Source: Moringa oleifera (lineage: Eukaryota; Streptophyta; Magnoliopsida; Brassicales; Moringaceae). From it: 64,000 bases of DNA. A program made the translations under genes and the position numbers. The stretch lies in the NCBI GenBank assembly GCA_021397835.1, contig JAJFZO010000034.1, positions 4,652,501 through 4,716,500 on the forward strand. The letters are read 5' to 3'. Below the pieces are notes generated by a model. The model had not been told where the DNA came from, did no database searches, and saw nothing but the letters and a program-made list of their open reading frames with translations. Shown piece after piece: positions 1 through 53,151 of this stretch; the stretch's first letter is position 1; each line of letters begins with the position of its first letter.

Positions 1-1
1 C

Positions 2-2617: not shown

Positions 2618-3813
2618 GTACCCCCACCAAACCTCCTAAATCAAAGGGCAAAACAAAACAAAATTCACCAACTACCCCACAATCTTATGCAATGACAAGT
2701 CAAGCCAAAACCCCAAAACCACAAAGCCCTGTCAAACTAGCAACAAATTCTTTTGCTCCACTAGACCCCTATTATGCAGGAGTACTAGTCCAACCCAGCC
2801 AATATCAAGCCCAGACCAGTCATGCTAATCAAGCTCTAATCCAATATAGCCCAACAACCCAAAAACATGACGCCCAATATATCACCAAAGAATTCCTGCT
2901 TCCCCTTTGCTATACAGACATTTCTGCAGGAGTTGACGAAGACAGCATCTCACTGTCTCAACTACTCAAACGCACTTTCCTTCCAAATTTCCACTACATC
3001 ACAGACAACCCTCAAAAAACTCAAAGATTTTATGAATTTATTTTAGTAGATACTCAATCTGCTGAAATTACCCACACCGAAGACCAAACAGACCCATCCA
3101 AAATAGCCTATTCAAAATGCCGCATCAAGAAGGTTATCACAGAAAAACAATGGGATCAAAGCCCATTCACATCCAAAAACTTTTCCCAAAGATTCATCCC
3201 CTAATCTTTCAATTACCAAGACTACAAAGATGCCTGGTGTAGAGCGTTCCTCATCAGGAATACTACCCACTCCTGGTTCTTTCATTTTGACAAAAGATCA
3301 TCCAAATCATTCCCAAACTGGTTTTCAGAATGGTGGTATTATATGGGAAGCTCTCCCGAAATACTACCTCAAACTATCCTTCAAAGTTATGAAGAGTTTG
3401 CCAAATCGGTCAAATTCCCAGACAATATCAAATTCCTCATGTTTTCAAATATCTTCTCAATACCTTGGATATTCTGTTGGGATTACAGGATAGCACAGGT
3501 ACTCCCTGTCCCACTCAATCAAAACTTAGCCAGACAACATCGCATCAAATGGCGGAAATCCTTCCACTCCCCTGATGCTGAACTACCTTAAGTCATGTTT
3601 TGGCTCTCCACCAACCCTGACAAACTAATCCAGCCAATCCAACAGTCAATCAACATATCTGCTCAAACCAGCCCATCTACCATATCCAAGAAAGATTACA
3701 GACGACAACTCCAACAAGCCCTCTCCCAACTGGGCAGTGACTCAGAAGAAGAGGAAGATGAAGTCCAAGACCCCTTTGGGGGCCCACTGGCACAAGATCC
3801 TTTTGAACTATAA
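2614..3813 (+). pseudogene. Viral ORF2, copy 1 (two premature stops)
   Basis: It is collinear with the intact 399-codon ORF2 of copy 3 but interrupted by TAA at codon 197 (3202-3204) and again at codon 326 (3589-3591). Both correspond to CAA glutamine codons in copy 3, so both are single C-to-T changes. There is also an Asn/His difference near 3178. Product as for copy 3, unknown function. The first stop is shared with copy 2; the second is private to this copy. Confidence 0.9.
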
Positions 3814-3879
3814 AGGATCTCAGGCGATCTCAGGCTCCATTCGGAGTCCACAAAAAAAAAAAAAAAAAAACAAAAGACA

Positions 3880-3917
3880 GAAAAAGAAGAAGAAAAAGGA
3901 AGAAAAGAAAAAGAAAT
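3880..3917 (+). promoter_or_regulatory. Polypurine tract, copy 1 (candidate plus-strand primer)
   Basis: An uninterrupted run of about 38 purines follows ORF2 and a 19-A homopolymer. Caulimovirids prime plus-strand DNA from RNase H-resistant polypurine RNA, so this is the natural candidate. Equivalent runs lie at 10127-10164 and 16366-16402. Confidence 0.5.
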
Positions 3918-4060
3918 TTTTCTAACCTACTTTTCTTGCAGGGATAAGAACGAACCACCAAGGCAAAAAGGCAATGGATCAGAAACAATCCAAAGCCATC
4001 AAAAGAAGACAAAAGACAAGGGCACATGGCCAACCTTCACTCACTACTTTTCCTTTCTGG

Positions 4061-4220
4061 AAAAGAAAAGCTGAGTTGGCCCCTACCAGTCAAAAGAAGA
4101 CAAGACTCCCCACTACCAAAGAAGATAAGAAGGAATCCTAACTACTCTTTTTTTCAAAAGAAAGATGAGTTGGCTTCCATCGAAGAAAGACAAGCCACCC
4201 CACTATCAAAAAAGAGCCTC
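4061..4220 (+). repeat. Duplicated segment upstream of viral TATA, copy 1
   Basis: Two imperfect segments of about 50 bp, starting near 4061 and 4157, share a GAGTTGGC core and a downstream AAGACAAG...CCCCACTA block. They sit about 100-260 bp before the TATA box, where caulimovirid promoters keep their enhancers. The same arrangement occurs in the other copies (near 10308-10467 and 16547-16706). Confidence 0.5.
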
Positions 4221-4323
4221 CATCCACAAGGATTAACGACAACTCAAAAGGAAAATAGTTCCCATCCAAAGATGACAAGACCTCACCAGCAAAGGAAAAG
4301 AATAATCAAGAAGCTCTCCTCAC

Positions 4324-4332
4324 TATAAAAAG
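4324..4332 (+). promoter_or_regulatory. Viral TATA box, copy 1 (pregenomic RNA promoter)
   Basis: TATAAAAAG precedes the likely transcript start by about 30 nt. The poly(A) signal AATAAA lies only 291 nt downstream, which gives the terminally redundant transcript typical of caulimovirid pregenomic RNA. Confidence 0.8.
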
Positions 4333-4614
4333 GGAACACATAGACACCCAGAGGCAGGCTTTTCATTAGGTTTTTCATTCAAGACTTCTCAACTTCAAGA
4401 CAGCCATCCCAAATCTCCGAAGATCCTACAATCTTCGACAAATCCAAACCCCTTATCCAAAATATCCCAAACACCAAAAGCTCATAGTTTATGAGCAAAT
4501 ACTTTCTGTATTACAAGTTAGAAGATACTACCTGGCAACAGTTTTGTAAGATCTACTTTATACTTTTGTTTTCTAAGTTTGCAATATTGTGTCTTTTGTA
4601 CTACATTTTGTTTT

Positions 4615-4620
4615 AATAAA
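4615..4620 (+). terminator. Viral poly(A) signal, copy 1
   Basis: AATAAA in a T-rich context downstream of the TATA box. In pararetroviruses it must be bypassed on first passage and used on the second, giving a redundant RNA. Confidence 0.75.
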
Positions 4621-4751
4621 TTTCAGTATTAATGTTTTGCTTCCCATTGTGCTTTTAATTCATTGTTTTATATCTTCTGTTATTCGTCTAGGTAGCCCCG
4701 TATACCGCTAGTCTAGTAGATCCATCCCACCTAGCCAGAGGGACCCGAAAA

Positions 4752-4763
4752 TGGTATCAGAGC
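4752..4763 (+). promoter_or_regulatory. tRNA-Met primer-binding site, copy 1
   Basis: TGGTATCAGAGC is the standard plant initiator tRNA-Met complement used by caulimovirids and many plant LTR elements to start minus-strand DNA. It lies about 130 nt downstream of the poly(A) signal and 588 nt before the ORF1 ATG, the expected place in a pararetrovirus leader. Confidence 0.93.
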
Positions 4764-4890
4764 CAAAGACTGGCACTGACGAATTGAACTAATAATTTTT
4801 ATTCTATCTAAGATTTTAGTGATTGTTCTTTATTCACAACCTCCTAGAAGTAGTTTTAGCCGAAGATAACTGGTTAGTCCACTCAAGGAA

Positions 4891-4980
4891 ACTGCTGGTG
4901 TTTTAAAGATAGTACGCCTAAACTGCTGGTGTTTTAAAGGTGGTGTGTTTACACTGCTGGTGTTTTAAAGATAGTGTGCT
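4891..4980 (+). repeat. Leader triple repeat, 31-bp period, copy 1
   Basis: ACTGCTGGTGTTTTAAAG occurs at 4891, 4922 and 4953, giving three near-identical 31-bp units in the leader between primer site and ORF1. The same array is at 11138-11227 and, with a few changes, at 17377-17466. Confidence 0.85.
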
Positions 4981-5034
4981 GAAGACCAGAAAGCTAAGGT
5001 AAACCCGAAGTAAGACCCGAGGAGGGGCAGCAGG

Positions 5035-5040
5035 GTAAGT
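5035..5040 (+). other. Candidate splice donor in viral leader
   Basis: CAGG|GTAAGT in the leader matches the plant 5' splice consensus well (copies at 11282 and 17521). Acceptor-like polypyrimidine-TTGCAG sites end at 8837 and 15084, 23 nt before ORF2, and another follows ORF2 (TTTTCTTGCAG ending 3941, 10188). Spliced RNA is used by some caulimovirids for a downstream ORF. Here it is only a sequence-based suggestion. Confidence 0.4.
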
Positions 5041-5067
5041 TAAGGCTAGAAGGTAGAAGCATCAAGC

Positions 5068-5145
5068 ACTATCCAATCCGGTGTAGGCGCCAAACACTAC
5101 CCAATCCGGGATAGGCACTAGTACTATCCAATCTGGGGACTGAGA
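5068..5145 (+). repeat. Second leader triple repeat, about 28-bp period, copy 1
   Basis: Three degenerate units around CACTATCCAATCCGG begin at 5068, 5096 and 5123. They recur at 11315-11392. In the truncated fourth leader the array breaks at 17552, just where this repeat block would begin. Confidence 0.75.
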
Positions 5146-5339
5146 GTGAACTTATCAGTAACAATAGGTTAGAACTTTCTCATAGGACTCGTGGTTAAAG
5201 AAGAAATTACTAAAATTAAGGTTAGAATAGAATTATTATTAAATTCTGAATTGTCCATATTTGGTAAAGAAACTGTTTTCTCGTTCTCACTTGAATAGGA
5301 GGGAGAAGAGATATAGGACAAGTGGTACATAGGATACCA

Positions 5340-8300
5340 ATGGAAGATTATGAATGTTATGAGTGTAGTTCTGAGTATTGTGATAATAGTTATGAATGTT
5401 GTAATCAAGAATATGATTACAGAGAAACTTGCGATGATTATGAAGATAATTGTCCAAGTACTAGTTATAAAGAGTATAGCCAGGAATACCAAGAAGATCT
5501 AGAAGATCAATACGATACAGAAAGTTTAGAACAAGAGTATCAACCCTACGGTCAAGACAGTTATTCTGGAATTAGATATCTATCTAAACCCAGAAAAATA
5601 GGAAAATTAGTTAGTGAAAAGCCTCACTACTCAAACCAGGACGACATCCTACTTCAAGCAATCAACAAACTCCTAGAAAAGGAATCCAAACCCAAATTCC
5701 AAATAGACAAAGATTTTCTCAGAACAGACTTCAACTCAGAAACAAACAGGCAAAAAAGAGAATGGTTTATGACCATCTTCTCAACAGAACGAAGAAGTCA
5801 AATTAGAGAGCAATATTACAAAGAAATGGAAGAAATACAAAAGAATATAGGATTCTTCGAATGGTTTGAATCCTATACACAACAAAAGGGCATAGAATAC
5901 CCCTTCAAAGCCCGACAAGAGGCCCTTAAGGCCAATGAAACCCAACAAGAGGCCCAAAAGGCCAAAGAAAAACAAAAAACTAGGAATAGAAAACCTAGTT
6001 CTCCAAAGATGGACTCTCCCCAAGAGCCCAGAATCCAAGAAATGGACTCTTCTCAAGAGTCTCAAAACCTTTACAAGAAACCCAAAAGTCAAGAAGATCA
6101 TAAAGATCTGCAACAAGAATCAAGCCAAATGGAAGACCCACAAAACCTAACCCAAGATCAATCTGTCCAGATGGACAACAATCCAAGCCAAGACCAAGAA
6201 GACTATGAAAGCCTACATAGTCCAACCCAAGTCCAAACACAAGATAGCCAATCAATAGGGTATCCAGAAAACCCACTAAGTCAAGAATACTTAGATGACA
6301 ACAGCCCAAAAGACAAAAAGGTTCAGAAGCCCATACTAGCAGCTGGTCCGACTCAGGAACAGTCAACTAGTCAAACAACCAAGGACGATTGTAAGGATAA
6401 TCATGTCCGAACATTCGGTCCAACCCACATACTAGACCTTGCACTATACCTTGCACTATTCAAGAACAAGGCTAGTAACAAGGCCCAAGATGATCAAGTC
6501 ATCCAAAGAGACCAAACTATTGGTCCAATCAAAAAGGATTCAACCCAGGAATTAGACAACAAAGAGTCTGAACTCTCAGTAGTCTATTCCAGGAACGAAC
6601 CTCAAGAGCCTCTCCAGGAACTTAGGTACATCCTGGTAAAAGAACCCAAAACAGAAGGAATCCTTCCTTCAATAGTCAAACCAAACCTAGACATGAGCCC
6701 AATCCAAGAAAAGGCAAGATGGGATCTAATCATTCCAAAAGCCTTTCCAGACTTCCAAGATTTCCAATTAGCCAAGGATCTATTTAGATCACCAAACCAA
6801 ATAAACTTGATTCGATCAAGTAGATCGACCCAAGTTAGAATTCAAGACTTATATTCAGAAATCAATAGGCTCAAGACTCAAATAAGTCAAAATCTGAAAG
6901 ACAGTCGGATACAAATCCAAAAGTGGTATGTCCAAGCCACACTGGTAATTAATGATGATTTTCATTTGATTACCATAGCCCTTGTAGACTCAGGAGCTGA
7001 TCAAAACTGTATACAAGAAGGGTTGATCCCAACCCAATATTATGAAAAAACAACAGAAAGGCTTTACGGAGCCAATGGAGTAGAACTCCAAGTCAAGTTC
7101 AAACTTACAAGAGTCAAAATATGCAATAATGGATATTGCATCAAAACCCCTTTCATCCTAGTTCAAGATTTACAACAAGGACTGATATTAGGAAATCCAT
7201 TCCTCACAAAAATATATCCTTTCTCAGTAGATCAGGAAGGGATATCTACAACCATACTAGGAGAACATGTCAAGTTCAAGTTCATCAAACAAGTCCAAAA
7301 CAGAGAATTAGCAAGACTTCAGGAAATTCCTGAAATTCAAAACAAACAGAAACAAATTAGGTGTCTTCATGAGGAGATACAATACCAAAAGATAGAAGAA
7401 CAACTAGCAAAACAAACAGTCCAGAATAGAATCAAAGACATAGAAACAAAACTTCAAAAAGAAGTATGTGCAGAAATACCCAATGCCTTTTGGAGTAGAG
7501 ACACCCATAAGGTAACCCTGCCATACGAACCAGACTTTAGAGAAAGTCAAATCCCAACCAAAGCTAGACCAATACAAATGAATCAAGAACACTTAGAGTA
7601 CTGCAAAAAAGAAATACAAGAGTTATTAGACAAAGGATTAATTAGACCAAGCAAATCTCCATGGAGCTGTGCTGCTTTTTATGTCTATAAAAATGCAGAA
7701 ATAGAGAGAGGAGCTCCAAGGCTAGTTATAAACTACAAACCCCTCAACAAAGCACTCAAATGGATTAGATATCCAATACCAAACAAGAGAGACCTGATTA
7801 ACAGGTTATACAAAGCCAAAATTTTTTCAAAATTTGACATGAAGTCAGGATACTGGCAAATACAAATAGAGGAACAAGACAAATACAAAACAGCTTTCAA
7901 TGTACCCTTTGGGCAATACGAATGGAACGTAATGCCTTTTGGACTCAAAAATGCCCCATCAGAATTCCAAAACATCATGAATGAGATCTTCAATGATTAT
8001 GTCTCATTCACAATAGTTTACATAGATGGTGTATTGATCTTTTCGGAGTCAATAGATCAACATTTCAAACAATTAAAAATCTTCTCAAACATCATCAAAA
8101 GAAAAGGATTAGTTATATCTTCAAAAAAGATGAAGATATTCCAAACCAAGGTTAGATTCCTAGGATTTGAAATATCCCAAGGAACCATTACCCCAATATC
8201 TCGTTCTATTGAATTTGCTGACAAATTCCCAGACGAGATCAAAGACAAAACTCAACTCCAAAGGTTTCTAGGGTGTCTGAATTATATCTCAGACTTTATC

Positions 8301-8864
8301 CCTAACCTGAGGCAAATCAGCAAACCCCTATTCCAAAGGATTAGAAAGAATCCCCAAAACAAAGAGTGGACACCACAAATGACAGAAATAGTCAAAACCC
8401 TAAAGGCCAAGGCTAAGTCATTGCCTTCCTTAGGAATTCCCAATCCTGAGGCACCTCTAACTGTGCAGACAGATGCCTCTGAACAAGGATACGGAGGTAT
8501 CCTCATCCAACAAATAAAAAACAAAGATCAAATAGTCAGATACCAATCAGGGATATGGAATCCCACTCAAGAGAATTACTCAACAGTCAAAAAAGAAATT
8601 TTAGCCATAGTATTATGTATTTCAAAATTTCAAGATGATCTATACAACAAGAAATTCTTGTTAAAAATAGATTGCAAATCTGCAAAAGAAATTTTGCAAA
8701 AAGATGTTCAAAATTTAGTTTCAAAACAAATATTTGCAAGATGGCAAGCACTACTTTCTGCTTTTGACTTCGATATAGAATTCATCAAAGGAAGTACAAA
8801 TTTTATTCCTGATTTTCTCACCCGTGAATTCTTGCAGGGGAAAGTCAAGAAAAAACAATCATGA
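5340..8864 (+). CDS. Viral ORF1 polyprotein, copy 2 (1174 aa)
   Basis: The first ATG of the open frame is at 5340. Residues 1-37 hold seven cysteines among acidic and tyrosine residues (C5, C8, C13, C19, C20, C30, C37). About 110-190 is helical and charged, and about 190-450 is Gln/Ser/Pro-rich and disordered. The aspartic protease has D550-S-G-A. Reverse transcriptase has motif A D833 and YIDG with D896 followed by Gly897 where the second catalytic Asp is expected. RNase H keeps its acidic set D1045, E1086, D1111 and D1158. No 30K-type movement protein motif and no CCHC coat-protein knuckle is visible. Function by family: polyprotein processing and reverse transcription in the cytoplasmic phase of the virus. 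The frame is intact, but the polymerase is probably dead. Confidence 0.93.
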   Translation: MEDYECYECSSEYCDNSYECCNQEYDYRETCDDYEDNCPSTSYKEYSQEYQEDLEDQYDTESLEQEYQPYGQDSYSGIRYLSKPRKIGKLVSEKPHYSNQDDILLQAINKLLEKESKPKFQIDKDFLRTDFNSETNRQKREWFMTIFSTERRSQIREQYYKEMEEIQKNIGFFEWFESYTQQKGIEYPFKARQEALKANETQQEAQKAKEKQKTRNRKPSSPKMDSPQEPRIQEMDSSQESQNLYKKPKSQEDHKDLQQESSQMEDPQNLTQDQSVQMDNNPSQDQEDYESLHSPTQVQTQDSQSIGYPENPLSQEYLDDNSPKDKKVQKPILAAGPTQEQSTSQTTKDDCKDNHVRTFGPTHILDLALYLALFKNKASNKAQDDQVIQRDQTIGPIKKDSTQELDNKESELSVVYSRNEPQEPLQELRYILVKEPKTEGILPSIVKPNLDMSPIQEKARWDLIIPKAFPDFQDFQLAKDLFRSPNQINLIRSSRSTQVRIQDLYSEINRLKTQISQNLKDSRIQIQKWYVQATLVINDDFHLITIALVDSGADQNCIQEGLIPTQYYEKTTERLYGANGVELQVKFKLTRVKICNNGYCIKTPFILVQDLQQGLILGNPFLTKIYPFSVDQEGISTTILGEHVKFKFIKQVQNRELARLQEIPEIQNKQKQIRCLHEEIQYQKIEEQLAKQTVQNRIKDIETKLQKEVCAEIPNAFWSRDTHKVTLPYEPDFRESQIPTKARPIQMNQEHLEYCKKEIQELLDKGLIRPSKSPWSCAAFYVYKNAEIERGAPRLVINYKPLNKALKWIRYPIPNKRDLINRLYKAKIFSKFDMKSGYWQIQIEEQDKYKTAFNVPFGQYEWNVMPFGLKNAPSEFQNIMNEIFNDYVSFTIVYIDGVLIFSESIDQHFKQLKIFSNIIKRKGLVISSKKMKIFQTKVRFLGFEISQGTITPISRSIEFADKFPDEIKDKTQLQRFLGCLNYISDFIPNLRQISKPLFQRIRKNPQNKEWTPQMTEIVKTLKAKAKSLPSLGIPNPEAPLTVQTDASEQGYGGILIQQIKNKDQIVRYQSGIWNPTQENYSTVKKEILAIVLCISKFQDDLYNKKFLLKIDCKSAKEILQKDVQNLVSKQIFARWQALLSAFDFDIEFIKGSTNFIPDFLTREFLQGKVKKKQS

Positions 8865-10060
8865 GTACCCCCACCAAACCTCCTAAATCAAAGGGCAAAA
8901 CAAAACAAAATTCACCAACTACCCCACAATCTTATGCAATGACAAGTCAAGCCAAAACCCCAAAACCACAAAGCCCTGTCAAACTAGCAACAAATTCTTT
9001 TGCTCCACTAGACCCCTATTATGCAGGAGTACTAGTCCAACCCAGCCAATATCAAGCCCAGACCAGTCATGCTAATCAAGCTCTAATCCAATATAGCCCA
9101 ACAACCCAAAAACATGACGCCCAATATATCACCAAAGAATTCCTGCTTCCCCTTTGCTATACAGACATTTCTGCAGGAGTTGACGAAGACAGCATCTCAC
9201 TGTCTCAACTACTCAAACGCACTTTCCTTCCAAATTTCCACTACATCACAGACAACCCTCAAAAAACTCAAAGATTTTATGAATTTATTTTAGTAGATAC
9301 TCAATCTGCTGAAATTACCCACACCGAAGACCAGACAGACCCATCCAAAATAGCCTATTCAAAATGCCGCATCAAGAAGGTTATCACAGAAAAACAATGG
9401 GATCAAAGCCCATTCACATCCAAACACTTTTCCCAAAGATTCATCCCCTAATCTTTCAATTACCAAGACTACAAAGATGCCTGGTGTAGAGCGTTCCTCA
9501 TCAGGAATACTACCCACTCCTGGTTCTTTCATTTTGACAAAAGATCATCCAAATCATTCCCAAACTGGTTTTCAGAATGGTGGTATTATATGGGAAGCTC
9601 TCCCGAAATACTACCTCAAACTATCCTTCAAAGTTATGAAGAGTTTGCCAAATCGGTCAAATTCCCAGACAATATCAAATTCCTCATGTTTTCAAATATC
9701 TTCTCAATACCTTGGATATTCTGTTGGGATTACAGGATAGCACAGGTACTCCCTGTCCCACTCAATCAAAACTTAGCCAGACAACATCGCATCAAATGGC
9801 GGAAATCCTTCCACTCCCCTGATGCTGAACTACCTCAAGTCATGTTTTGGCTCTCCACCAACCCTGACAAACTAATCCAGCCAATCCAACAGTCAATCAA
9901 CATATCTGCTCAAACCAGCCCATCTACCATATCCAAGAAAGATTACAGACGACAACTCCAACAAGCCCTCTCCCAACTGGGCAGTGACTCAGAAGAAGAG
10001 GAAGATGAAGTCCAAGACCCCTTTGGGGGCCCACTGGCACAAGATCCTTTTGAACTATAA
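8861..10060 (+). pseudogene. Viral ORF2, copy 2 (one premature stop)
   Basis: It starts inside the ORF1 stop (ATGA) and is interrupted by TAA at codon 197 (9449-9451), where copy 3 has CAA. Downstream the frame stays open to 10060, so only the first 196 residues would be made without readthrough. It shares this stop with copy 1, so copies 1 and 2 descend from one ancestor that already carried it. Confidence 0.9.
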
Positions 10061-10570
10061 AGGATCTCAGGCGATCTCAGGCTCCATTCGGAGTCCACAA
10101 AAAAAAAAAAAAAAAAACAAAAGACAGAAAAAGAAGAAGAAAAAGGAAGAAAAGAAAAAGAAATTTTTCTAACCTACTTTTCTTGCAGGGATAAGAACGA
10201 ACCACCAAGGCAAAAAGGCAATGGATCAGAAAGAATCCAAAGCCATCAAAAGAAGACAAAAGACAAGGGCACATGGCCAACCTTCACTCACTACTTTTCC
10301 TTTCTGGAAAAGAAAAGCTGAGTTGGCCCCTACCAGTCAAAAGAAGACAAGACTCCCCACTACCAAAGAAGATAAGAAGGAATCCTAACTACTCTTTTTT
10401 TCAAAAGAAAGATGAGTTGGCTTCCATCGAAGAAAGACAAGCCACCCCACTATCAAAAAAGAGCCTCCATCCACAAGGATTAACGACAACTCAAAAGGAA
10501 AATAGTTCCCATCCAAAGATGACAAGACCTCACCAGCAAAGGAAAAGAATAATCAAGAAGCTCTCCTCAC

Positions 10571-10579
10571 TATAAAAAG
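10571..10579 (+). promoter_or_regulatory. Viral TATA box, copy 2
   Basis: Identical TATAAAAAG in unit B, preceded by the same duplicated upstream region. Confidence 0.8.
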
Positions 10580-10861
10580 GGAACACATAGACACCCAGAG
10601 GCAGGCTTTTCATTAGGTTTTTCATTCAAGACTTCTCAACTTCAAGACAGCCATCCCAAATCTCCGAAGATCCTACAATCTTCGACAAATCCAAACCCCT
10701 TATCCAAAATATCCCAAACACCAAAAGCTCATAGTTTATGAGCAAATACTTTCTGTATTACAAGTTAGAAGATACTACCTGGCAACAGTTTTGTAAGATC
10801 TACTTTATACTTTTGTTTTCTAAGTTTGCAATATTGTGTCTTTTGTACTACATTTTGTTTT

Positions 10862-10867
10862 AATAAA
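10862..10867 (+). terminator. Viral poly(A) signal, copy 2
   Basis: AATAAA at the equivalent place in unit B, 6247 bp after the first. Confidence 0.75.
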
Positions 10868-10998
10868 TTTCAGTATTAATGTTTTGCTTCCCATTGTGCT
10901 TTTAATTCATTGTTTTATATCTTCTGTTATTCGTCTAGGTAGCCCCGTATACCGCTAGTCTAGTAGATCCATCCCACCTAGCCAGAGGGACCCGAAAA

Positions 10999-11010
10999 TG
11001 GTATCAGAGC
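10999..11010 (+). promoter_or_regulatory. tRNA-Met primer-binding site, copy 2
   Basis: Identical TGGTATCAGAGC motif exactly 6247 bp after the first site. It marks the start of the second complete genome unit. Confidence 0.93.
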
Positions 11011-11586
11011 CAAAGACTGGCACTGACGAATTGAACTAATAATTTTTATTCTATCTAAGATTTTAGTGATTGTTCTTTATTCACAACCTCCTAGAAGTAG
11101 TTTTAGCCGAAGATAACTGGTTAGTCCACTCAAGGAAACTGCTGGTGTTTTAAAGATAGTACGCCTAAACTGCTGGTGTTTTAAAGGTGGTGTGTTTACA
11201 CTGCTGGTGTTTTAAAGATAGTGTGCTGAAGACCAGAAAGCTAAGGTAAACCCGAAGTAAGACCCGAGGAGGGGCAGCAGGGTAAGTTAAGGCTAGAAGG
11301 TAGAAGCATCAAGCACTATCCAATCCGGTGTAGGCGCCAAACACTACCCAATCCGGGATAGGCACTAGTACTATCCAATCTGGGGACTGAGAGTGAACTT
11401 ATCAGTAACAATAGGTTAGAACTTTCTCATAGGACTCGTGGTTAAAGAAGAAATTACTAAAATTAAGGTTAGAATAGAATTATTATTAAATTCTGAATTG
11501 TCCATATTTGGTAAAGAAACTGTTTTCTCGTTCTCACTTGAATAGGAGGGAGAAGAGATATAGGACAAGTGGTACATAGGATACCA

Positions 11587-14500
11587 ATGGAAGATTATGA
11601 ATGTTATGAGTGTAGTTCTGAGTATTGTGATAATAGTTATGAATGTTGTAATCAAGAATATGATTACAGAGAAACTTGCGATGATTATGAAGATAATTGT
11701 CCAAGTACTAGTTATAAAGAGTATAGCCAGGAATACCAAGAAGATCTAGAAGATCAATACGATACAGAAAGTTTAGAACAAGAGTATCAACCCTACGGTC
11801 AAGACAGTTATTCTGGAATTAGATATCTATCTAAACCCAGAAAAATAGGAAAATTAGTTAGTGAAAAGCCTCACTACTCAAACCAGGACGACATCCTACT
11901 TCAAGCAATCAACAAACTCCTAGAAAAGGAATCCAAACCCAAATTCCAAATAGACAAAGATTTTCTCAGAACAGACTTCAACTCAGAAACAAACAGGCAA
12001 AAAAGAGAATGGTTTATGACCATCTTCTCAACAGAACGAAGAAGTCAAATTAGAGAGCAATATTACAAAGAAATGGAAGAAATACAAAAGAATATAGGAT
12101 TCTTCGAATGGTTTGAATCCTATACACAACAAAAGGGCATAGAATACCCCTTCAAAGCCCGACAAGAGGCCCTTAAGGCCAATGAAACCCAACAAGAGGC
12201 CCAAAAGGCCAAAGAAAAACAAAAAACTAGGAATAGAAAACCTAGTTCTCCAAAGATGGACTCTCCCCAAGAGCCCAGAATCCAAGAAATGGACTCTTCT
12301 CAAGAGTCTCAAAACCTTTACAAGAAACCCAAAAGTCAAGAAGATCATAAAGATCTGCAACAAGAATCAAGCCAAATGGAAGACCCACAAAACCTAACCC
12401 AAGATCAATCTGTCCAGATGGACAACAATCCAAGCCAAGACCAAGAAGACTATGAAAGCCTACATAGTCCAACCCAAGTCCAAACACAAGATAGCCAATC
12501 AATAGGGTATCCAGAAAACCCACTAAGTCAAGAATACTTAGATGACAACAGCCCAAAAGACAAAAAGGTTCAGAAGCCCATACTAGCAGCTGGTCCGACT
12601 CAGGAACAGTCAACTAGTCAAACAACCAAGGACGATTGTAAGGATAATCATGTCCGAACATTCGGTCCAACCCACATACTAGACCTTGCACTATACCTTG
12701 CACTATTCAAGAACAAGGCTAGTAACAAGGCCCAAGATGATCAAGTCATCCAAAGAGACCAAACTATTGGTCCAATCAAAAAGGATTCAACCCAGGAATT
12801 AGACAACAAAGAGTCTGAACTCTCAGTAGTCTATTCCAGGAACGAACCTCAAGAGCCTCTCCAGGAACTTAGGTACATCCTGGTAAAAGAACCCAAAACA
12901 GAAGGAATCCTTCCTTCAATAGTCAAACCAAACCTAGACATGAGCCCAATCCAAGAAAAGGCAAGATGGGATCTAATCATTCCAAAAGCCTTTCCAGACT
13001 TCCAAGATTTCCAATTAGCCAAGGATCTATTTAGATCACCAAACCAAATAAACTTGATTCGATCAAGTAGATCGACCCAAGTTAGAATTCAAGACTTATA
13101 TTCAGAAATCAATAGGCTCAAGACTCAAATAAGTCAAAATCTGAAAGACAGTCGGATACAAATCCAAAAGTGGTATGTCCAAGCCACACTGGTAATTAAT
13201 GATGATTTTCATTTGATTACCATAGCCCTTGTAGACTCAGGAGCTGATCAAAACTGTATACAAGAAGGGTTGATCCCAACCCAATATTATGAAAAAACAA
13301 CAGAAAGGCTTTACGGAGCCAATGGAGTAGAACTCCAAGTCAAGTTCAAACTTACAAGAGTCAAAATATGCAATAATGGATATTGCATCAAAACCCCTTT
13401 CATCCTAGTTCAAGATTTACAACAAGGACTGATATTAGGAAATCCATTCCTCACAAAAATATATCCTTTCTCAGTAGATCAGGAAGGGATATCTACAACC
13501 ATACTAGGAGAACATGTCAAGTTCAAGTTCATCAAACAAGTCCAAAACAGAGAATTAGCAAGACTTCAGGAAATTCCTGAAATTCAAAACAAACAGAAAC
13601 AAATTAGGTGTCTTCATGAGGAGATACAATACCAAAAGATAGAAGAACAACTAGCAAAACAAACAGTCCAGAATAGAATCAAAGACATAGAAACAAAACT
13701 TCAAAAAGAAGTATGTGCAGAAATACCCAATGCCTTTTGGAGTAGAGACACCCATAAGGTAACCCTGCCATACGAACCAGACTTTAGAGAAAGTCAAATC
13801 CCAACCAAAGCTAGACCAATACAAATGAATCAAGAACACTTAGAGTACTGCAAAAAAGAAATACAAGAGTTATTAGACAAAGGATTAATTAGACCAAGCA
13901 AATCTCCATGGAGCTGTGCTGCTTTTTATGTCTATAAAAATGCAGAAATAGAGAGAGGAGCTCCAAGGCTAGTTATAAACTACAAACCCCTCAACAAAGC
14001 ACTCAAATGGATTAGATATCCAATACCAAACAAGAGAGACCTGATTAACAGGTTATACAAAGCCAAAATTTTTTCAAAATTTGACATGAAGTCAGGATAC
14101 TGGCAAATACAAATAGAGGAACAAGACAAATACAAAACAGCTTTCAATGTACCCTTTGGGCAATACGAATGGAACGTAATGCCTTTTGGACTCAAAAATG
14201 CCCCATCAGAATTCCAAAACATCATGAATGAGATCTTCAATGATTATGTCTCATTCACAATAGTTTACATAGATGGTGTATTGATCTTTTCGGAGTCAAT
14301 AGATCAACATTTCAAACAATTAAAAATCTTCTCAAACATCATCAAAAGAAAAGGATTAGTTATATCTTCAAAAAAGATGAAGATATTCCAAACCAAGGTT
14401 AGATTCCTAGGATTTGAAATATCCCAAGGAACCATTACCCCAATATCTCGTTCTATTGAATTTGCTGACAAATTCCCAGACGAGATCAAAGACAAAACTC

Positions 14501-15111
14501 AACTCCAAAGGTTTCTAGGGTGTCTGAATTATATCTCAGACTTTATCCCTAACCTGAGGCAAATCAGCAAACCCCTATTCCAAAGGATTAGAAAGAATCC
14601 CCAAAACAAAGAGTGGACACCACAAATGACAGAAATAGTCAAAACCCTAAAGGCCAAGGCTAAGTCATTGCCTTCCTTAGGAATTCCCAATCCTGAGGCA
14701 CCTCTAACTGTGCAGACAGATGCCTCTGAACAAGGATACGGAGGTATCCTCATCCAACAAATAAAAAACAAAGATCAAATAGTCAGATACCAATCAGGGA
14801 TATGGAATCCCACTCAAGAGAATTACTCAACAGTCAAAAAAGAAATTTTAGCCATAGTATTATGTATTTCAAAATTTCAAGATGATCTATACAACAAGAA
14901 ATTCTTGTTAAAAATAGATTGCAAATCTGCAAAAGAAATTTTGCAAAAAGATGTTCAAAATTTAGTTTCAAAACAAATATTTGCAAGATGGCAAGCACTA
15001 CTTTCTGCTTTTGACTTCGATATAGAATTCATCAAAGGAAGTACAAATTTTATTCCTGATTTTCTCACCCGTGAATTCTTGCAGGGGAAAGTCAAGAAAA
15101 AACAATCATGA
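11587..15111 (+). CDS. Viral ORF1 polyprotein, copy 3 (1174 aa)
   Basis: It encodes the same protein as copy 2, with the same domain order: Cys-rich acidic N-terminus, disordered middle, protease, reverse transcriptase, RNase H. The reverse transcriptase again reads YIDG (GGT at 14275-14277). The TGA at 15109-15111 overlaps the ATG of ORF2 as ATGA, an arrangement that suits translational coupling. Of the three copies it is the only one followed by an unbroken ORF2. Complete identity over 3.5 kb argues for recent duplication or homogenisation. Confidence 0.93.
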   Translation: MEDYECYECSSEYCDNSYECCNQEYDYRETCDDYEDNCPSTSYKEYSQEYQEDLEDQYDTESLEQEYQPYGQDSYSGIRYLSKPRKIGKLVSEKPHYSNQDDILLQAINKLLEKESKPKFQIDKDFLRTDFNSETNRQKREWFMTIFSTERRSQIREQYYKEMEEIQKNIGFFEWFESYTQQKGIEYPFKARQEALKANETQQEAQKAKEKQKTRNRKPSSPKMDSPQEPRIQEMDSSQESQNLYKKPKSQEDHKDLQQESSQMEDPQNLTQDQSVQMDNNPSQDQEDYESLHSPTQVQTQDSQSIGYPENPLSQEYLDDNSPKDKKVQKPILAAGPTQEQSTSQTTKDDCKDNHVRTFGPTHILDLALYLALFKNKASNKAQDDQVIQRDQTIGPIKKDSTQELDNKESELSVVYSRNEPQEPLQELRYILVKEPKTEGILPSIVKPNLDMSPIQEKARWDLIIPKAFPDFQDFQLAKDLFRSPNQINLIRSSRSTQVRIQDLYSEINRLKTQISQNLKDSRIQIQKWYVQATLVINDDFHLITIALVDSGADQNCIQEGLIPTQYYEKTTERLYGANGVELQVKFKLTRVKICNNGYCIKTPFILVQDLQQGLILGNPFLTKIYPFSVDQEGISTTILGEHVKFKFIKQVQNRELARLQEIPEIQNKQKQIRCLHEEIQYQKIEEQLAKQTVQNRIKDIETKLQKEVCAEIPNAFWSRDTHKVTLPYEPDFRESQIPTKARPIQMNQEHLEYCKKEIQELLDKGLIRPSKSPWSCAAFYVYKNAEIERGAPRLVINYKPLNKALKWIRYPIPNKRDLINRLYKAKIFSKFDMKSGYWQIQIEEQDKYKTAFNVPFGQYEWNVMPFGLKNAPSEFQNIMNEIFNDYVSFTIVYIDGVLIFSESIDQHFKQLKIFSNIIKRKGLVISSKKMKIFQTKVRFLGFEISQGTITPISRSIEFADKFPDEIKDKTQLQRFLGCLNYISDFIPNLRQISKPLFQRIRKNPQNKEWTPQMTEIVKTLKAKAKSLPSLGIPNPEAPLTVQTDASEQGYGGILIQQIKNKDQIVRYQSGIWNPTQENYSTVKKEILAIVLCISKFQDDLYNKKFLLKIDCKSAKEILQKDVQNLVSKQIFARWQALLSAFDFDIEFIKGSTNFIPDFLTREFLQGKVKKKQS

Positions 15112-16307
15112 GTACCCCCACCAAACCTCCTAAATCAAAGGGCAAAACAAAACAAAATTCACCAACTACCCCACAATCTTATGCAATGACAAGTCAAGCC
15201 AAAACCCCAAAACCACAAAGCCCTGTCAAACTAGCAACAAATTCTTTTGCTCCACTAGACCCCTATTATGCAGGAGTACTAGTCCAACCCAGCCAATATC
15301 AAGCCCAGACCAGTCATGCTAATCAAGCTCTAATCCAATATAGCCCAACAACCCAAAAACATGACGCCCAATATATCACCAAAGAATTCCTGCTTCCCCT
15401 TTGCTATACAGACATTTCTGCAGGAGTTGACGAAGACAGCATCTCACTGTCTCAACTACTCAAACGCACTTTCCTTCCAAATTTCCACTACATCACAGAC
15501 AACCCTCAAAAAACCCAAAGGTTTTATGAATTCATCTTAGTGGATACCCAGTCTGCTGAGATTACCCACACAGAAGACCAGACAGACCCATCCAAAATAG
15601 CCTATTCAAAATGCCGCATCAAGAAGGTTATCACAGAAAAACAATGGGATCAAAGCCCATTCACATCCAAACACTTTTCCCAAAGATTCATCCCCCAATC
15701 TTTCAATTACCAAGACTACAAAGATGCCTGGTGTAGAGCATTCCTCATCAGGAATACTACCCACTCCTGGTTCTTTCATTTTGAAAAAAGATCATCCAGA
15801 TCATTCCCAAACTGGTTTTCAGAATGGTGGTATTATATGGGAAGCTCTCCCGAAATACTACCCCCAACTGTCCTTCAAAGTTATGAAGAGTTTGCCAAAT
15901 CGGTCAAATTCCCAGACAATATCAAATTCCTCATGTTTTCAAATATCTTCTCAATACCTTGGATATTCTGTTGGGATTACAGGATAGCACAGGTACTCCC
16001 TGTCCCACTCAATCAAAACTTAGCCAGACAACATCGCATCAAATGGCGGAAATCCTTCCACTCCCCTGATGCTGAACTACCTCAAGTCATGTTTTGGCTC
16101 TCCACCAACCCTGACAAACTAATCCAGCCAATCCAACAGTCAATCAACATATCTGCTCAAACCAGCCCATCTACCATATCCAAGAAAGATTACAGACGAC
16201 AACTCCAACAAGCCCTCTCCCAACTGGGCAGTGACTCAGAAGAAGAGGAAGATGAAGTCCAAGACCCCTTTGGGGGCCCACTGGCACAAGATCCTTTTGA
16301 ACTATAA
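15108..16307 (+). CDS. Viral ORF2, intact copy (399 aa, unknown function)
   Basis: This is the only complete ORF2 in the window. The N-terminus (about 1-55) is rich in Lys, Pro, Thr and Gln. Residues about 85-330 form a folded-looking, aromatic-rich region with Trp motifs such as FPNWFSEWWYY and IPWIFCWDYRI. The C-terminus is acidic (SDSEEEEDE). I see no transmembrane segment, zinc knuckle or enzyme motif. Second ORFs of unknown function follow the polyprotein in some endogenous caulimovirids. It begins with a 4-nt overlap with ORF1, and a splice-acceptor-like TTGCAG ends 23 nt upstream of its ATG. A capsid or transactivator role is possible, but nothing visible proves either. Confidence 0.85.
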   Translation: MSTPTKPPKSKGKTKQNSPTTPQSYAMTSQAKTPKPQSPVKLATNSFAPLDPYYAGVLVQPSQYQAQTSHANQALIQYSPTTQKHDAQYITKEFLLPLCYTDISAGVDEDSISLSQLLKRTFLPNFHYITDNPQKTQRFYEFILVDTQSAEITHTEDQTDPSKIAYSKCRIKKVITEKQWDQSPFTSKHFSQRFIPQSFNYQDYKDAWCRAFLIRNTTHSWFFHFEKRSSRSFPNWFSEWWYYMGSSPEILPPTVLQSYEEFAKSVKFPDNIKFLMFSNIFSIPWIFCWDYRIAQVLPVPLNQNLARQHRIKWRKSFHSPDAELPQVMFWLSTNPDKLIQPIQQSINISAQTSPSTISKKDYRRQLQQALSQLGSDSEEEEDEVQDPFGGPLAQDPFEL

Positions 16308-16809
16308 AGGATCTCAGGCGATCTCAGGCTCCATTCGGAGTCCACAAAAAAAAAAACAAAAAGACAGAAAAAGAAGAAGAAAAGGAAGAAAAGAAAAAGA
16401 AATTTTTCTAACATACTTTTCTTGCAGGGATAAGAATGAACCACCAAAGCAAAAAGGCAATGAATCAGAAAGAATCCAAAGCCATCAAAAGAAGACAAAA
16501 GACAAGGGCACATGGCCAACCTTCACTCACTACTTTTCCTTTCTGGAAAAGAAAAGCTGAGTTGGTCCCTACCAGTCAAAAGAAGACAAGACTCCCCACT
16601 ACCAAAGAAGATAAGAAGGAATCCTAACTACTCTTTTTTTCAAAAGAAAGATGAGTTGGCTTCCATCGAAGAAAGACAAGCCACCCCACTATCAAAAAAG
16701 AGCCTCCATCCACAAGGATTAACGACAACTCAAAAGGAAAATAGTTCCCATCCAAAGATGATAAGACCTCACCAGCAAAGGAAAAGAATAATCAAGAAGC
16801 TCTCCTCAC

Positions 16810-16818
16810 TATAAAAAG
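16810..16818 (+). promoter_or_regulatory. Viral TATA box, copy 3
   Basis: Same TATA box in unit C. A transcript from here would read through the truncated fourth leader into the inverted element and would be antisense to the 356-aa ORF. Confidence 0.8.
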
Positions 16819-17100
16819 GGAACACATAGACACCCAGAGGCAGGCTTTTCATTAGGTTTTTCATTCAAGACTTCTCAACTTCAAGACAGCCATCCCAAAT
16901 CTCCGAAGATCCTACAATCTTCGACAAATCCAAACCCCTTATCCAAAATATCCCAAACACCAAAAGCTCATAGTTTATGAGCAAATACTTTCTGTATTAC
17001 AAGTTAGAAGATACTACCTGGCAACAGTTTTGTAAGATCTACTTTATACTTTTGTTTTCTAAGTTTGTAATATTGTGTCTTTTGTACTACATTTTGTTTT

Positions 17101-17106
17101 AATAAA
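17101..17106 (+). terminator. Viral poly(A) signal, copy 3
   Basis: AATAAA at the equivalent place in unit C. It would end array transcripts before the inverted junction. Confidence 0.75.
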
Positions 17107-17237
17107 TTTCAGTATTAATGTTTTGCTTCCCATTGTGCTTTTAATTCATTGTTTTATATCTTCTGTTATTCGTCTAGATAGCCTCGTATACCGCTAGTCT
17201 AGTAGATCCATCCCACCTAGCCAGAGGGACCCGAAAA

Positions 17238-17249
17238 TGGTATCAGAGC
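17238..17249 (+). promoter_or_regulatory. tRNA-Met primer-binding site, copy 3
   Basis: Same motif, 6239 bp after the previous one. It belongs to the truncated fourth unit, which breaks 315 bp from the start of this site. Confidence 0.93.
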
Positions 17250-17553
17250 CAAAGACTAGCACTGACGAATTGAACTAATAATTTTTATTCTATCTAAGAT
17301 TTTAGTGATTGTTCTTTGTTCACAACCTCCTAGAAGTAGTTTTAGCCGAAGATAACTGGTTAGTCCACTCAAGGAAACTGCTAGTGTTTTAAAGATAGTA
17401 CGCCTAAACTGTTGGTGTTTTAAAGGTGGTGTGTTTACACTGCTGGTGTTTTAAAGATAGTGTGTTGAAGACCAGAAAGCTAAGGTAAACCCGAAGTAAG
17501 ACCCGAGGAGGGGCAGCAGGGTAAGTTAAGGCTAGAAGGTAGAAGCATCAAGG

Positions 17554-18624
17554 TTATCTTGGATTGTTGATTTCATGGAATTCCTGGGGAGGTTGGGCCA
17601 GGAACATGTCTGGTGAGGCCGATAGAAAGATTTGGTGTTGGGCTGGTGTTTCGGTAAGGCCATGGGTTTGTGGTATGGTTGAGACTATCTTGATTGGTCC
17701 TGGATTGGGTTGACCATACTCGAGGGCCATTTGGAATCTGGTTCCAAAGTGTCTAAGTTGGAGGGTATTTGTGATAATGAGCTGGTCAAGCATACCATGC
17801 TCATAGAGTTGAATGATTTGGGATGAAAACAGGTTGGTCTCAAAACAGTTAATCCTGGCTTTGAGAAGACCTGATTGGTTGGAGTTTGGATAGTAATAGG
17901 GTTCTTGGACAATTGTAACCCCATTAACTGGTATTTGTTTGGTGAAGATTTGAAAAAGAAGGTTTTGTAGCCAGATTAGTTTTTTGATAAACAAAGTCTG
18001 GCAATGTTGGGCTATAATGGGCTGGAGTCCTGGTTCGATATCGAACAAGGGTTTGAGTGTGTCATGGGTTTTGAGTTTGAGTCTCACTTGGAGGGCCTCA
18101 TTGGTTCTGTTTGGAGGTATGGATCGTATTTGTCTGGATCTTAGTGAGGAATTCTCTAAGATCAACTGATTGATTTGATTTTGAAGTTGGTTGACTTGTT
18201 GGGTGGCTTGATCCCACTGGGTTATGAACCAAGTAAAGGATTCACTTTGGCTGGATAGCTGGCTTTTGATTTGGGGTAAGAGGGCTTTGGCTCTTTGGAG
18301 TTTTCTGATAAGCCGTTGATTGTCCTGCAAAATTGAGAAAACATAGTCATCTGTATGACCAGATGATCTTTGGTTAGATGTTTGAATGTTCTGCTCATGG
18401 AAATAATAGGCTAAGGCATTAAGACTGGTTAGCCTGTTTTGAATGATTTTGCTATTCCAAAGGTGGTCTAGCAAGCATTGTTGATTTGGGTGAATAGAAG
18501 TGTTTGGTGGTAATCTAAAAGCCCTTGGGTCATAATTTGGAAAGGTTTGGAATTGAAATGGGCCATATTGGTGCATGGGTTGGATTTCGTCTTGATCTTG
18601 ACTGTGTCTACTGCTGGATGCCAT
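17554..18624 (-). CDS. 356-aa viral-associated ORF, unknown function
   Basis: The ATG is at 18624 (GCAG|ATGGCATCC) and the TAA stop at 17556-17554 touches the array junction. The N-terminus is Gln/Pro/Phe-rich. Residues about 95-165 are predicted coiled coil, with repeated Leu/Gln heptads and many QxxNQLxxQINQL patterns. The C-terminal half is mixed and hydrophobic. I recognise no enzyme motif, zinc knuckle or membrane segment. It starts 21 nt after the end of a protease reading frame, just as ORF2 follows the polyprotein in the array, and it is open over its whole length. A virion-associated or structural role would fit a coiled-coil protein, but this is inference. Confidence 0.75.
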   Translation of the reverse strand: MASSSRHSQDQDEIQPMHQYGPFQFQTFPNYDPRAFRLPPNTSIHPNQQCLLDHLWNSKIIQNRLTSLNALAYYFHEQNIQTSNQRSSGHTDDYVFSILQDNQRLIRKLQRAKALLPQIKSQLSSQSESFTWFITQWDQATQQVNQLQNQINQLILENSSLRSRQIRSIPPNRTNEALQVRLKLKTHDTLKPLFDIEPGLQPIIAQHCQTLFIKKLIWLQNLLFQIFTKQIPVNGVTIVQEPYYYPNSNQSGLLKARINCFETNLFSSQIIQLYEHGMLDQLIITNTLQLRHFGTRFQMALEYGQPNPGPIKIVSTIPQTHGLTETPAQHQIFLSASPDMFLAQPPQEFHEINNPR

Positions 18625-18645
18625 CTGCAAAACAGCAAATTTGAT

Positions 18646-18888
18646 TCAGATAAAATTGAATGATATGTTAGATGTTTTGAAATGAATGCCATGTATGTCT
18701 ACCCGAAAGGGGTAAATTTTTGATAAAAATGGAGTTCCTAAGATAACTCCTTGTTGGATATCTTTGACGAGGATGAAATCAGTCTAGATTTCTACCTCCT
18801 TTTGCATGAGTTTGGTTTTTGTGAGCTTGAACCTGGTTGATAGTCTCTGGCCATTGGCACCACATAGTCTTTCTCTAGTGGGCTCAAT
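18646..18888 (-). pseudogene. Aspartic protease C-terminal fragment of second element
   Basis: Reading minus from 18888, about 80 codons align with residues after the DSGA box of the array protease, including RLCGANG, TDFILV, QQGVILGTPFLSKIYPF and a final NFI. There is one internal TAG (18884-18886 region excluded; the stop lies at 18784-18786), and the frame ends with TGA at 18646-18648. In the array the protease runs on into reverse transcriptase; here it ends. The active-site part is missing upstream of 18888. Confidence 0.8.
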
Positions 18889-20660
18889 TATTTACTTAAT
18901 TTAACATTATTAATTTTAATTAATTACTTAATTTAATGTTATTAATTTTGTGATCTTGTTTTATAAAAATACTTAAGTATCCAATTATTTTTATAAGATG
19001 TATTTTAAATTAATATTATTTTATTTATTTTTTTAATTTTTTGAAAAACTAAAAATTTTAAAAACGTTTAAAACTATACTTGAATAAAACCTTGAATTGA
19101 TCCGTCACCTAAATCAAAACTTGAACTAATTTGCAACCAACACTAAACTCGAATAAATACTTAACTCATGATTAGGAGCTTATCATAAATTGAATTTTAA
19201 ATTTAAATCGATTTTGAATCACACTTGAATTTATTTCAAATCGAATTTGAACTAAATCTTGGATTAATTTCAAATCCAATCTTAATGGAAACAATAACCT
19301 TACAGTTCTAGTTTTAATTTTTTTCTTCACTAACTCTGAAATGACGATTGAAAACTAAAATCAAATCAAGACTGCGATCACATCTACATGTATGGAACAT
19401 GAAGATAAGATTAGAACACAAAATACATCACGTTAAGAGGGACTTAGTGTAGTAGAGTGTGTATGTGTGTGTGTATACACAAGTATGCTAAAAACAAACA
19501 CACAGAAATGCCCCAGCGATAACTTTATTTATAATATGTTTCAAAATTGAGTTACTTCTCAGATGCAAATACCGTTTCAGGCTTTATAAAAATAAGAGAT
19601 CGTATATCTTTTGTTTCTTTTATAATATGTTTTACTAATATGTATTATCTTCCTAAAACAAGTTGTTTTGCCGAGAGAAAAAAATATAAAAAAAGAGAGA
19701 TAAAAAAATGGGTGGATAGAAGCAGAGACAGATGGATACACCGACAAACATGATACTACAGGCAGTAGTCGGAGTTGAGCTTGTGCATCCTGCTTTGGTC
19801 AAATTGCGGAAATCACGGGTCATCCCATTGTGACCTAACTTGCCTGATTTTTGCCCGTCAGGTTTGTAAGTTGTAACACAACTATCTACTACAAGCCTTT
19901 TTCTTTTTCTTTTTCTTTTTTAATCTACTAGAAGGCCTTTTTTCAGAGAGAAAAAAAAAGGAAAGTAAATAAGCTACCTTGTTTCAATTTGAAAGTGAAA
20001 TAATTTTCATCAAACATATGCTGTTTTTGAAAATCAATTTATTGAATCAATTGCATCTCTTCAATACATATCCAATGTAATATTTCTCAATTCATACTTT
20101 TAACTTTATTTTTAGAATAAATCTTACAATTTGGTAAGTATCAAGGTTTTTCTGATACAAATTTGTGAACAACTTGAAATAGACAGCCCAAAAGACTAAA
20201 CAATTTAATGAAAACATGTCTCTCTAGAGAGGTCTGGGTGTATTTCATTTATCATGTTTAAAATTTCTTTGAAGAGTGACTGTTGTGATTATTAACTTGT
20301 TAAATATAACTTATTAAATGGAAAAAAAAATTCTTTCATTTATATCATCGATATTTCCTCATCCCAATTTCATGCAAGATTGTACAACTCCATAAGGGTA
20401 TAAAAAGAAGAAGAAGAATAAAAATGAAAAAGAGAAACTTTAGAAGCACCATCAATAAAATAAATACAATAAATAAACTAGAATTTGCTTAGATACAGGC
20501 AAGGGGTAAAACTGAAAGCAAATTCCCTGACCAAACCTCAAAACCCAAAACAAGGAGGATACAACCAAAAGTTTTTCCAATCTGCTGTGCATAATTGATA
20601 TGGAAAATATGGGAGGGAAATTTTAATGAAGGGCACAACCAAAAACTAGGACCCAAAAAG
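18889..20660. other. AT-rich intergenic DNA between viral block and PICC-like gene
   Basis: No gene is recognised. A 26-bp sequence beginning TTACTTAATTTAA is duplicated at 18892-18917 and 18924-18949, right beside the viral end. A short TG run lies near 19461-19474. Sequence from about 20450 to 20660 is probably the 3'UTR of the gene to the right. Confidence 0.6.
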
Positions 20661-53100: not shown

Positions 53101-53151
53101 AAGTGGAAACCCTACCGTCTTCGACCGTTGAACTTCTTGAAGAATTCTCTA

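What the first reader, a model, noticed from the sequence alone, without database searches (positions are those of the whole stretch)
17553..18888. Second element: protease ends, then a new 356-aa ORF instead of reverse transcriptase
The inverted segment has a protease tail clearly related to that of the array, but its frame stops (TGA 18646-18648) where the array continues into reverse transcriptase. Then, 21 nt on, comes an open coiled-coil ORF not found in the array. The order polyprotein end, short gap, second ORF copies the ORF1-ORF2 arrangement. Bipartite organisation has been proposed for some florendoviruses, so this could be the partner component of the array virus or of a close relative. 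The link between the two is my inference.
Basis: partly seen in the sequence, partly recalled or inferred. Interest (0 to 1): 0.9.

Follow-up and report, generated by a model that had tools for sequence, protein, structure and literature searches.

The report
Fragment of a reverse-transcriptase-less plant virus
Stuck head-on to a tandem array of a fossil plant DNA virus is a 1.3-kb scrap of a related element that carries a new coiled-coil protein where the copying enzyme should be; it fits, but does not prove, a two-part virus genome of a kind already proposed in grape and rice.

Summary
An inverted segment (17553-~18890, minus strand) abuts the array at 17552|17553. It carries the last ~80 residues of a viral aspartic protease (53% identical to the array's), a TGA at 18648-18646, 21 nt, and an intact 356-aa ORF. 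Corrections: the protease tail also has an in-frame TAG (18786-18784), and the 356-aa ORF lies in the same frame as the protease, unlike the array's ORF2. So it resembles the C-terminal extension of the RT-less 'component B' of bipartite florendoviruses (Geering 2014) more than an ORF1-ORF2 copy. In the array unit I detected no movement- or coat-protein signature, as in 'component A', which strengthens the partner idea. Against it: the 356-aa protein shows no similarity to ORF2 (score 10.9, reached by 191 of 200 shuffles; held-out ORF2 relatives score 262-362), the segment shows no RNase H remnant, no relative was found in the collections searched, no MP, CP or intergenic region is preserved, and there is one copy. 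The host genome search did not complete. Best reading: a fragment of a component-B-like, RT-less caulimovirid; partnership with the array virus is plausible but unproven.

The parts
17553..18890 (-). Inverted segment: fragment of a second caulimovirid element. Left edge exact, right edge within about 18885-18900
   Evidence: Array match ends at 17552; protease match reaches 18885; AT content rises to 0.92 in 18901-18950
18646..18885 (-). C-terminal ~80 residues of an aspartic protease, downstream of the catalytic DSG; in-frame TAG at 18786-18784 and final TGA at 18648-18646
   Evidence: tblastn 53% identity, E 3.6e-20; translation; dN 0.29, dS 1.89 over 59 codons
17554..18624 (-). 356-aa ORF (41 kDa) with a coiled-coil signal at residues 91-168; same frame as the protease; stop codon 1 nt inside the junction
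   Evidence: no relatives
1..17552 (+). Tandem array of 6247-bp pararetrovirus units in the opposite orientation; the window starts inside it
   Evidence: units 1 and 2 differ at 5 of 6247 positions
11569..15111 (+). Array ORF1 (unit 3, first ATG about 11587): DUF7588, aspartic protease, RT, RNase H; no movement-protein or zinc-finger signature detected
15108..16307 (+). Array ORF2 (399 aa, intact in unit 3; stop codons in units 1 and 2)
   Evidence: plant relatives
17238..17250 (+). tRNA-Met primer-site motif of the last, partial array unit (the motif is recalled)
   Evidence: sequence; same motif at 10999-11011

Best explanation
The inverted segment is the 3' coding part of an RT-lacking, component-B-like endogenous caulimovirid, captured together with the tandem array of a component-A-like virus during repair of a chromosome break. 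In the parent element a polyprotein (upstream part missing here, expected to be MP and CP) ended in the protease, and the 356-aa coiled-coil module followed directly in the same frame in place of RT and RNase H. It would have depended on RT and RNase H supplied in trans by an RT-bearing helper such as the array virus, and would have given back movement and coat proteins, of which none was detected in the array unit. The 356-aa module would be a self-associating accessory protein (virion-associated or host-interacting), made as the last polyprotein product or from its own ATG. Shown: anatomy, junction, relatedness of the proteases, no RT in this segment, no detectable MP/CP signature in the array unit. 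Inferred: MP and CP upstream, trans-complementation, capture by break repair, the role of the 356-aa protein.
For: The switch from protease to the 356-aa module falls at the end of the protease homology. Protease and module share a frame (one chance in three by accident), as in component B polyproteins with a C-terminal extension (PMC4241990, passages). The protease tails have dN 0.29 and dS 1.89 over 59 codons: for much of their separation they evolved as working proteins. The ORF's base make-up (A .35 C .29 G .13 T .23) equals that of array ORF2 (A .34 C .29 G .14 T .23) and not the flank (A .34 C .17 G .16 T .33); codon usage correlates 0.67 with ORF2, 0.66 with the N-terminal and protease part of ORF1, 0.50 with its RT part and 0.37 with a neighbouring host ORF. 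The array unit is 6247 bp, keeps AP-RT-RH1 and ORF2, and shows no MP or CP signature, matching component A (5.5-6.9 kbp). Rice ePVCVL and eRTBVL2 carry another unknown domain after the protease and no RT/RH (PMC5491270, sections 6 and 8 and passages).
Against: One truncated copy with an in-frame stop in the protease. No MP, CP, promoter or primer site on the fragment. The module is not detectably homologous to ORF2, whereas in Vitis the component B extension is. Published component B lacks only RT and the N-terminal part of RNase H; no RNase H remnant was detected here. The TGA between protease and ORF may mean separate ORFs or decay. No relatives were found, so conservation of the ORF cannot be tested.
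Confidence: 0.5

Rival explanations
1. Internal deletion: the segment comes from an ordinary single-component virus whose RT-RNase H was lost in this one copy, before or at integration; the 356-aa ORF is then its (very diverged or replaced) ORF2.
For: Only one copy seen, already broken in the protease; ORF composition matches ORF2; no RNase H remnant as published component B has.
Against: A random deletion would have to fall at the end of the protease domain and leave the next ORF intact and in frame; the protein does not match the ORF2 family although 6 of 6 held-out members do.
Confidence: 0.25
2. Junction artefact of integration: protease tail and 356-aa ORF come from different elements joined as filler DNA.
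For: Head-to-head patchwork with the array at 17552|17553; capture as filler DNA is the route thought likely for such inserts (PMC13308828, passage).
Against: Same frame, and strand composition of the ORF is that of an array gene; but no second copy was available to test the junction.
Confidence: 0.12
3. The ORF belongs to another retroelement group (for example a Ty3-type element) or to a host gene.
For: The Pfam matches are weak, below cut-off, and mostly to coiled-coil families; an ORF with weak coiled-coil matches lies nearby at 22426-26097.
Against: The adjoining protease is 53% identical to the array's; composition and codon usage are those of the array's genes and not of the neighbouring host ORF or flank; no Pfam family reaches its cut-off.
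Confidence: 0.06
4. The ORF is a highly diverged homologue of florendovirus ORF2, beyond sequence detection, so this is a textbook component B (a special case of the best explanation; the confidences overlap).
For: Geering reports more divergent ORF2 homologues in O. sativa and S. bicolor; the two low-confidence models put helices and strands in a loosely similar order in their C-terminal halves (my reading by eye, weak).
Against: hhalign score 10.9; 191 of 200 shuffles of the same protein, and its reversed sequence (16.9), score as high or higher; the single-sequence model has mean pLDDT 39.
Confidence: 0.2

Closest known systems
Component B of bipartite florendoviruses (VvinBV, VvinDV, OsatBV, SbicV; Geering 2014, PMC4241990)
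   Same: Protease followed in frame by an extra module, no RT; found joined to an RT-bearing component lacking CP
   Different: The extension there is described as homologous to ORF2 and part of RNase H remains; here neither is detectable; a stop codon lies between protease and module; MP and CP are not preserved here
Non-autonomous rice pararetroviruses ePVCVL and eRTBVL2 with the 'SFKTE' domain (Chen 2017, PMC5491270)
   Same: RT/RH replaced after the protease by a domain of unknown function; ePVCVL has a partner with complementary genes
   Different: The SFKTE domain alignment is 522 aa long and lies within an ORF; the 356-aa protein lacks the SFKTE string (the domain sequence itself was not available); 24 and 13 segments known in rice, copy number here unknown
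ePVCVL2 / florendovirus component A (compared with the array unit)
   Same: Protease, RT, RNase H and ORF2, no coat-protein zinc finger; size of the florendovirus components (5.5-6.9 kbp)
   Different: No MP was recognised in the array, whereas rice ePVCVL2 of the Oryza group keeps MP; in Vitis component A, MP is sometimes missing

Membership tests
Florendovirus component B (for the inverted segment) | Aspartic protease present and RT absent behind it | tested here: met
   Protease tail, then a non-RT ORF; no RT match in the segment. Only the protease tail is preserved
Florendovirus component B (for the inverted segment) | C-terminal extension in the polyprotein frame | tested here: inconclusive
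   Same frame, but a TGA stands between
Florendovirus component B (for the inverted segment) | Extension homologous to ORF2 of component A | tested here: not met
   BLASTP: nothing better than E = 4; hhalign probability 0.1%; score reached by 191 of 200 shuffles, while 6 of 6 held-out ORF2 members score 262-362
Florendovirus component B (for the inverted segment) | C-terminal part of RNase H retained | tested here: not met
   No RNase H family in the ORF; the array's RT-RNase H piece has no match in the segment at E <= 10
Florendovirus component B (for the inverted segment) | MP and CP upstream of the protease | not testable with these tools
   The fragment ends inside the protease at about 18890
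Florendovirus component B (for the inverted segment) | Intergenic region >90% identical to the partner | not testable with these tools
   No intergenic region in the fragment; host genome search unanswered
Florendovirus component A (for the array unit) | AP, RT and RH1 in ORF1 plus ORF2 in another frame | tested here: met
Florendovirus component A (for the array unit) | CP (and sometimes MP) missing; 5.5-6.9 kbp | tested here: met
   No MP hit up to E = 1 in the three ORF1 pieces; no CX2CX4HX4C in six frames of the array; 6247 bp. Intergenic ORFs, 126 aa at most, were not scanned against Pfam; a very diverged MP or CP cannot be ruled out
Genus Florendovirus (for the array unit) | Groups with florendoviruses in an RT tree | not tested
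   No named reference RT set was in hand; the ORF2 relatives found bear plant or no names, none a virus name

The most novel reading that the evidence does not exclude
A divided pararetrovirus genome in a new host, whose RT-less partner carries a coiled-coil protein unrelated to florendovirus ORF2 (an independently acquired gene in the place of RT), with both partners captured in one compound insertion beside a little-decayed array of the RT partner.
Probability: 0.3. Interest if true: 0.7.

Novelty: new variant of a known kind. Interest (0 to 1): 0.45.

Why it matters
Geering 2014 call divided genomes unique among viral retroelements and argue that the state arose three times with similar outcomes. 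Another case with a different gene behind the protease would show that losing RT from one segment and reusing its place is a recurring path, and would give a protein (356 aa) with which to look for further partners that RT-based surveys miss. As it stands it is one fragment and should be treated as a lead.

Tried and rejected
Searches that found nothing: the 356-aa ORF in 5.8 billion proteins, among candidates of similar length (1033 candidates, E <= 0.001) and of polyprotein length (1316 candidates, E <= 10); viral contigs with the ORF, with ORF2 and with the array RT piece (2, 6 and 10 pattern matches, none confirmed); prokaryote contigs (16 pattern matches, none confirmed); PDB sequences. 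Fold of ORF2 (6 sequences, mean pLDDT 53) against viral and PDB structures: no match at E <= 0.001. The 356-aa model (mean pLDDT 39) was too poor to search. In the ORF2 profile A2, 5 of the 8 hits were used; P0005, P0009 and P0010, which looked fused or partial, were left out (all 8 are in A1). In the dN/dS count 59 codons were used; the columns next to the stop and the last part of the protease alignment were dropped.

The host species was not identified.

Full report
What is there. The window begins inside a tandem array of 6247-bp pararetrovirus units. The last unit is cut 302 nt beyond its tRNA-Met motif (17238-17250; motif recalled), and at 17552|17553 the sequence changes to a segment running the other way. 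On the minus strand that segment reads: the last ~80 residues of an aspartic protease (18885-18649; 53% identity to the array's protease, tblastn E = 3.6e-20), a TGA at 18648-18646, 21 nt, and an intact ORF of 356 codons that stops 1 nt inside the junction. Beyond about 18890 lies AT-rich DNA (92% A+T in 18901-18950). Florendovirus inserts are often near TA simple repeats (PMC4241990, abstract); I did not test for such a repeat here.

Is it more than chance? None of 2000 second-order Markov simulations of the segment gave an ORF of 356 aa, though the maximum was 353. The ORF's base composition (A .35 C .29 G .13 T .23) is that of the array's ORF2 (A .34 C .29 G .14 T .23) and unlike the flank (A .34 C .17 G .16 T .33). 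Its codon usage correlates better with the array's ORF2 and with the N-terminal and protease part of ORF1 (0.67, 0.66) than with the array's RT part (0.50) or a nearby non-viral ORF (0.37). Residues 91-168 show a heptad signal (p = 0.0004 against 5000 shuffles, the best of six stretches tried). I take it as a real viral gene.

First, the protease tail has an in-frame TAG at 18786-18784, so this copy is partly decayed. Second, the ORF is in the same frame as the protease, 24 nt from stop codon to ATG, while the array's ORF2 overlaps ORF1 by 4 nt in another frame. The layout is thus not a copy of the array's ORF1-ORF2 layout. It is closer to the published component B polyprotein with a C-terminal extension, with a stop codon in between that one copy cannot explain. 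A shared frame alone has one chance in three.

The array as partner. The array's ORF1 (unit 3) was scanned in three pieces: DUF7588, protease, RT and RNase H were found, with no movement-protein hit at E <= 1 and no CX2CX4HX4C zinc finger in six frames of the array. Intergenic ORFs, 126 aa at most, were listed but not scanned. An RT-bearing unit of 5.5-6.9 kbp without CP, and sometimes without MP, is what Geering 2014 call component A. So the array virus itself looks unable to move and encapsidate alone, which makes a helper or partner likely. A very diverged MP or CP is not excluded.

The protease comparison. Over 59 aligned codons (two blocks, 26 and 33; the rest of the alignment dropped) the two protease tails differ at 16, 14 and 31 first, second and third positions, 66% nt identity, dN 0.29 and dS 1.89 (dS is near saturation, so only the direction is safe). 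The two lineages were under protein-level selection for much of their separation, and the segment is not a recent deletion derivative of the array virus. In rice, too, the protease nucleotide sequences of the two partners are very dissimilar (PMC5491270, section 8). So the divergence does not exclude partnership, but conspecificity cannot be argued from the protease.

What the 356-aa protein is not. BLASTP gives nothing better than E = 0.75 against the first 700 residues of array ORF1 or E = 4 against ORF2; the array's RT-RNase H piece has no match in the segment. The array's ORF2 has 8 plant-like relatives among 1084 candidates (5 of 8 named to a plant, 3 unnamed). A profile of the ORF2 domain recovers each held-out member (6 of 6, scores 262-362), but scores the 356-aa protein at 10.9, a score reached by 191 of 200 shuffles; its C-terminal part does no better (10.7, reached by 172 of 200). 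With the full 9-sequence alignment the probability is 0.1%. No relative was found in 5.8 billion proteins at similar length (1033 candidates) or at polyprotein length (1316 candidates, E <= 10), in viral contigs, prokaryote contigs or PDB sequences. How well plants are covered by these collections is not known to me, and the protein search needs shared 5-residue words, so absence is weak evidence of uniqueness.

Mechanism. My best reading (0.5) is that the segment is the 3' coding part of an RT-lacking, component-B-like element: its pregenomic RNA would be reverse transcribed in trans by an RT-bearing relative such as the array virus, while it supplied MP and CP (expected upstream, not preserved). 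The 356-aa module would be an oligomerising accessory protein, either the last product of the polyprotein or made from its own ATG, which follows TTTGCAG, a stretch that could serve as a splice acceptor (recalled pattern, untested). Shown: anatomy, junction, protease relatedness, absence of RT here, no MP/CP signature detected in the array. Inferred: all else. The main rival is an ordinary virus with its RT-RNase H deleted in this one copy (0.25).

Known or new. Bipartite florendoviruses and compound A+B insertions are in print (PMC4241990: outline and abstract, passages, figure legends and tables seen), as are RT-less rice pararetroviruses with an unknown domain after the protease (PMC5491270: outline and abstract, sections 6 and 8, passages). 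Sugar beet is a further reported case (through PMC10377300, passage; the paper itself is not held). If real, this is a new variant: the module does not meet the ORF2-homology feature of component B, nor is the RNase H remnant seen, so I do not file it as a member. Five paper searches (8 of 8, 20 of 13,659, 13 of 13, 20 of 250 and 12 of 37 papers listed) showed no title or abstract opening on a module of this kind; I saw listings and, for six papers, passages or sections, not whole texts.

Limits. The host was not identified. All conclusions about the segment rest on one truncated copy.

Noticed in passing
1-17552: Array units 1 and 2 differ at only 5 of 6247 positions; unit 3 equals unit 2 over its first 3020 nt, then switches to a distinct variant from 15515 on. 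In ORF2, 11 of 16 differences between units 3 and 2 and 12 of 19 between units 3 and 1 are synonymous, which suggests two replicating variants that recombined before or at capture.
   Followed up: partly
2614-3813, 8861-10060, 15108-16307: ORF2 is intact in unit 3 but carries stop codons in units 1 (two) and 2 (one).
   Followed up: partly
11956-12150: DUF7588 (PF24496, E 1.9e-20) lies near the N-terminus of array ORF1; its role is unknown to me.
   Followed up: no
22426-26097 (-) and 53128-54342 (+): Probable host genes: a 1223-aa ORF with weak, below-cut-off coiled-coil matches (scanned in two pieces) and a PPR-repeat protein; the viral insert ends about 3.5 kb from the first.
   Followed up: no
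18625-18645 (-): TTTGCTGTTTTGCAG directly before the ATG of the 356-aa ORF resembles a plant splice acceptor (pattern recalled); it could offer a way to express the ORF from a spliced RNA.
   Followed up: no
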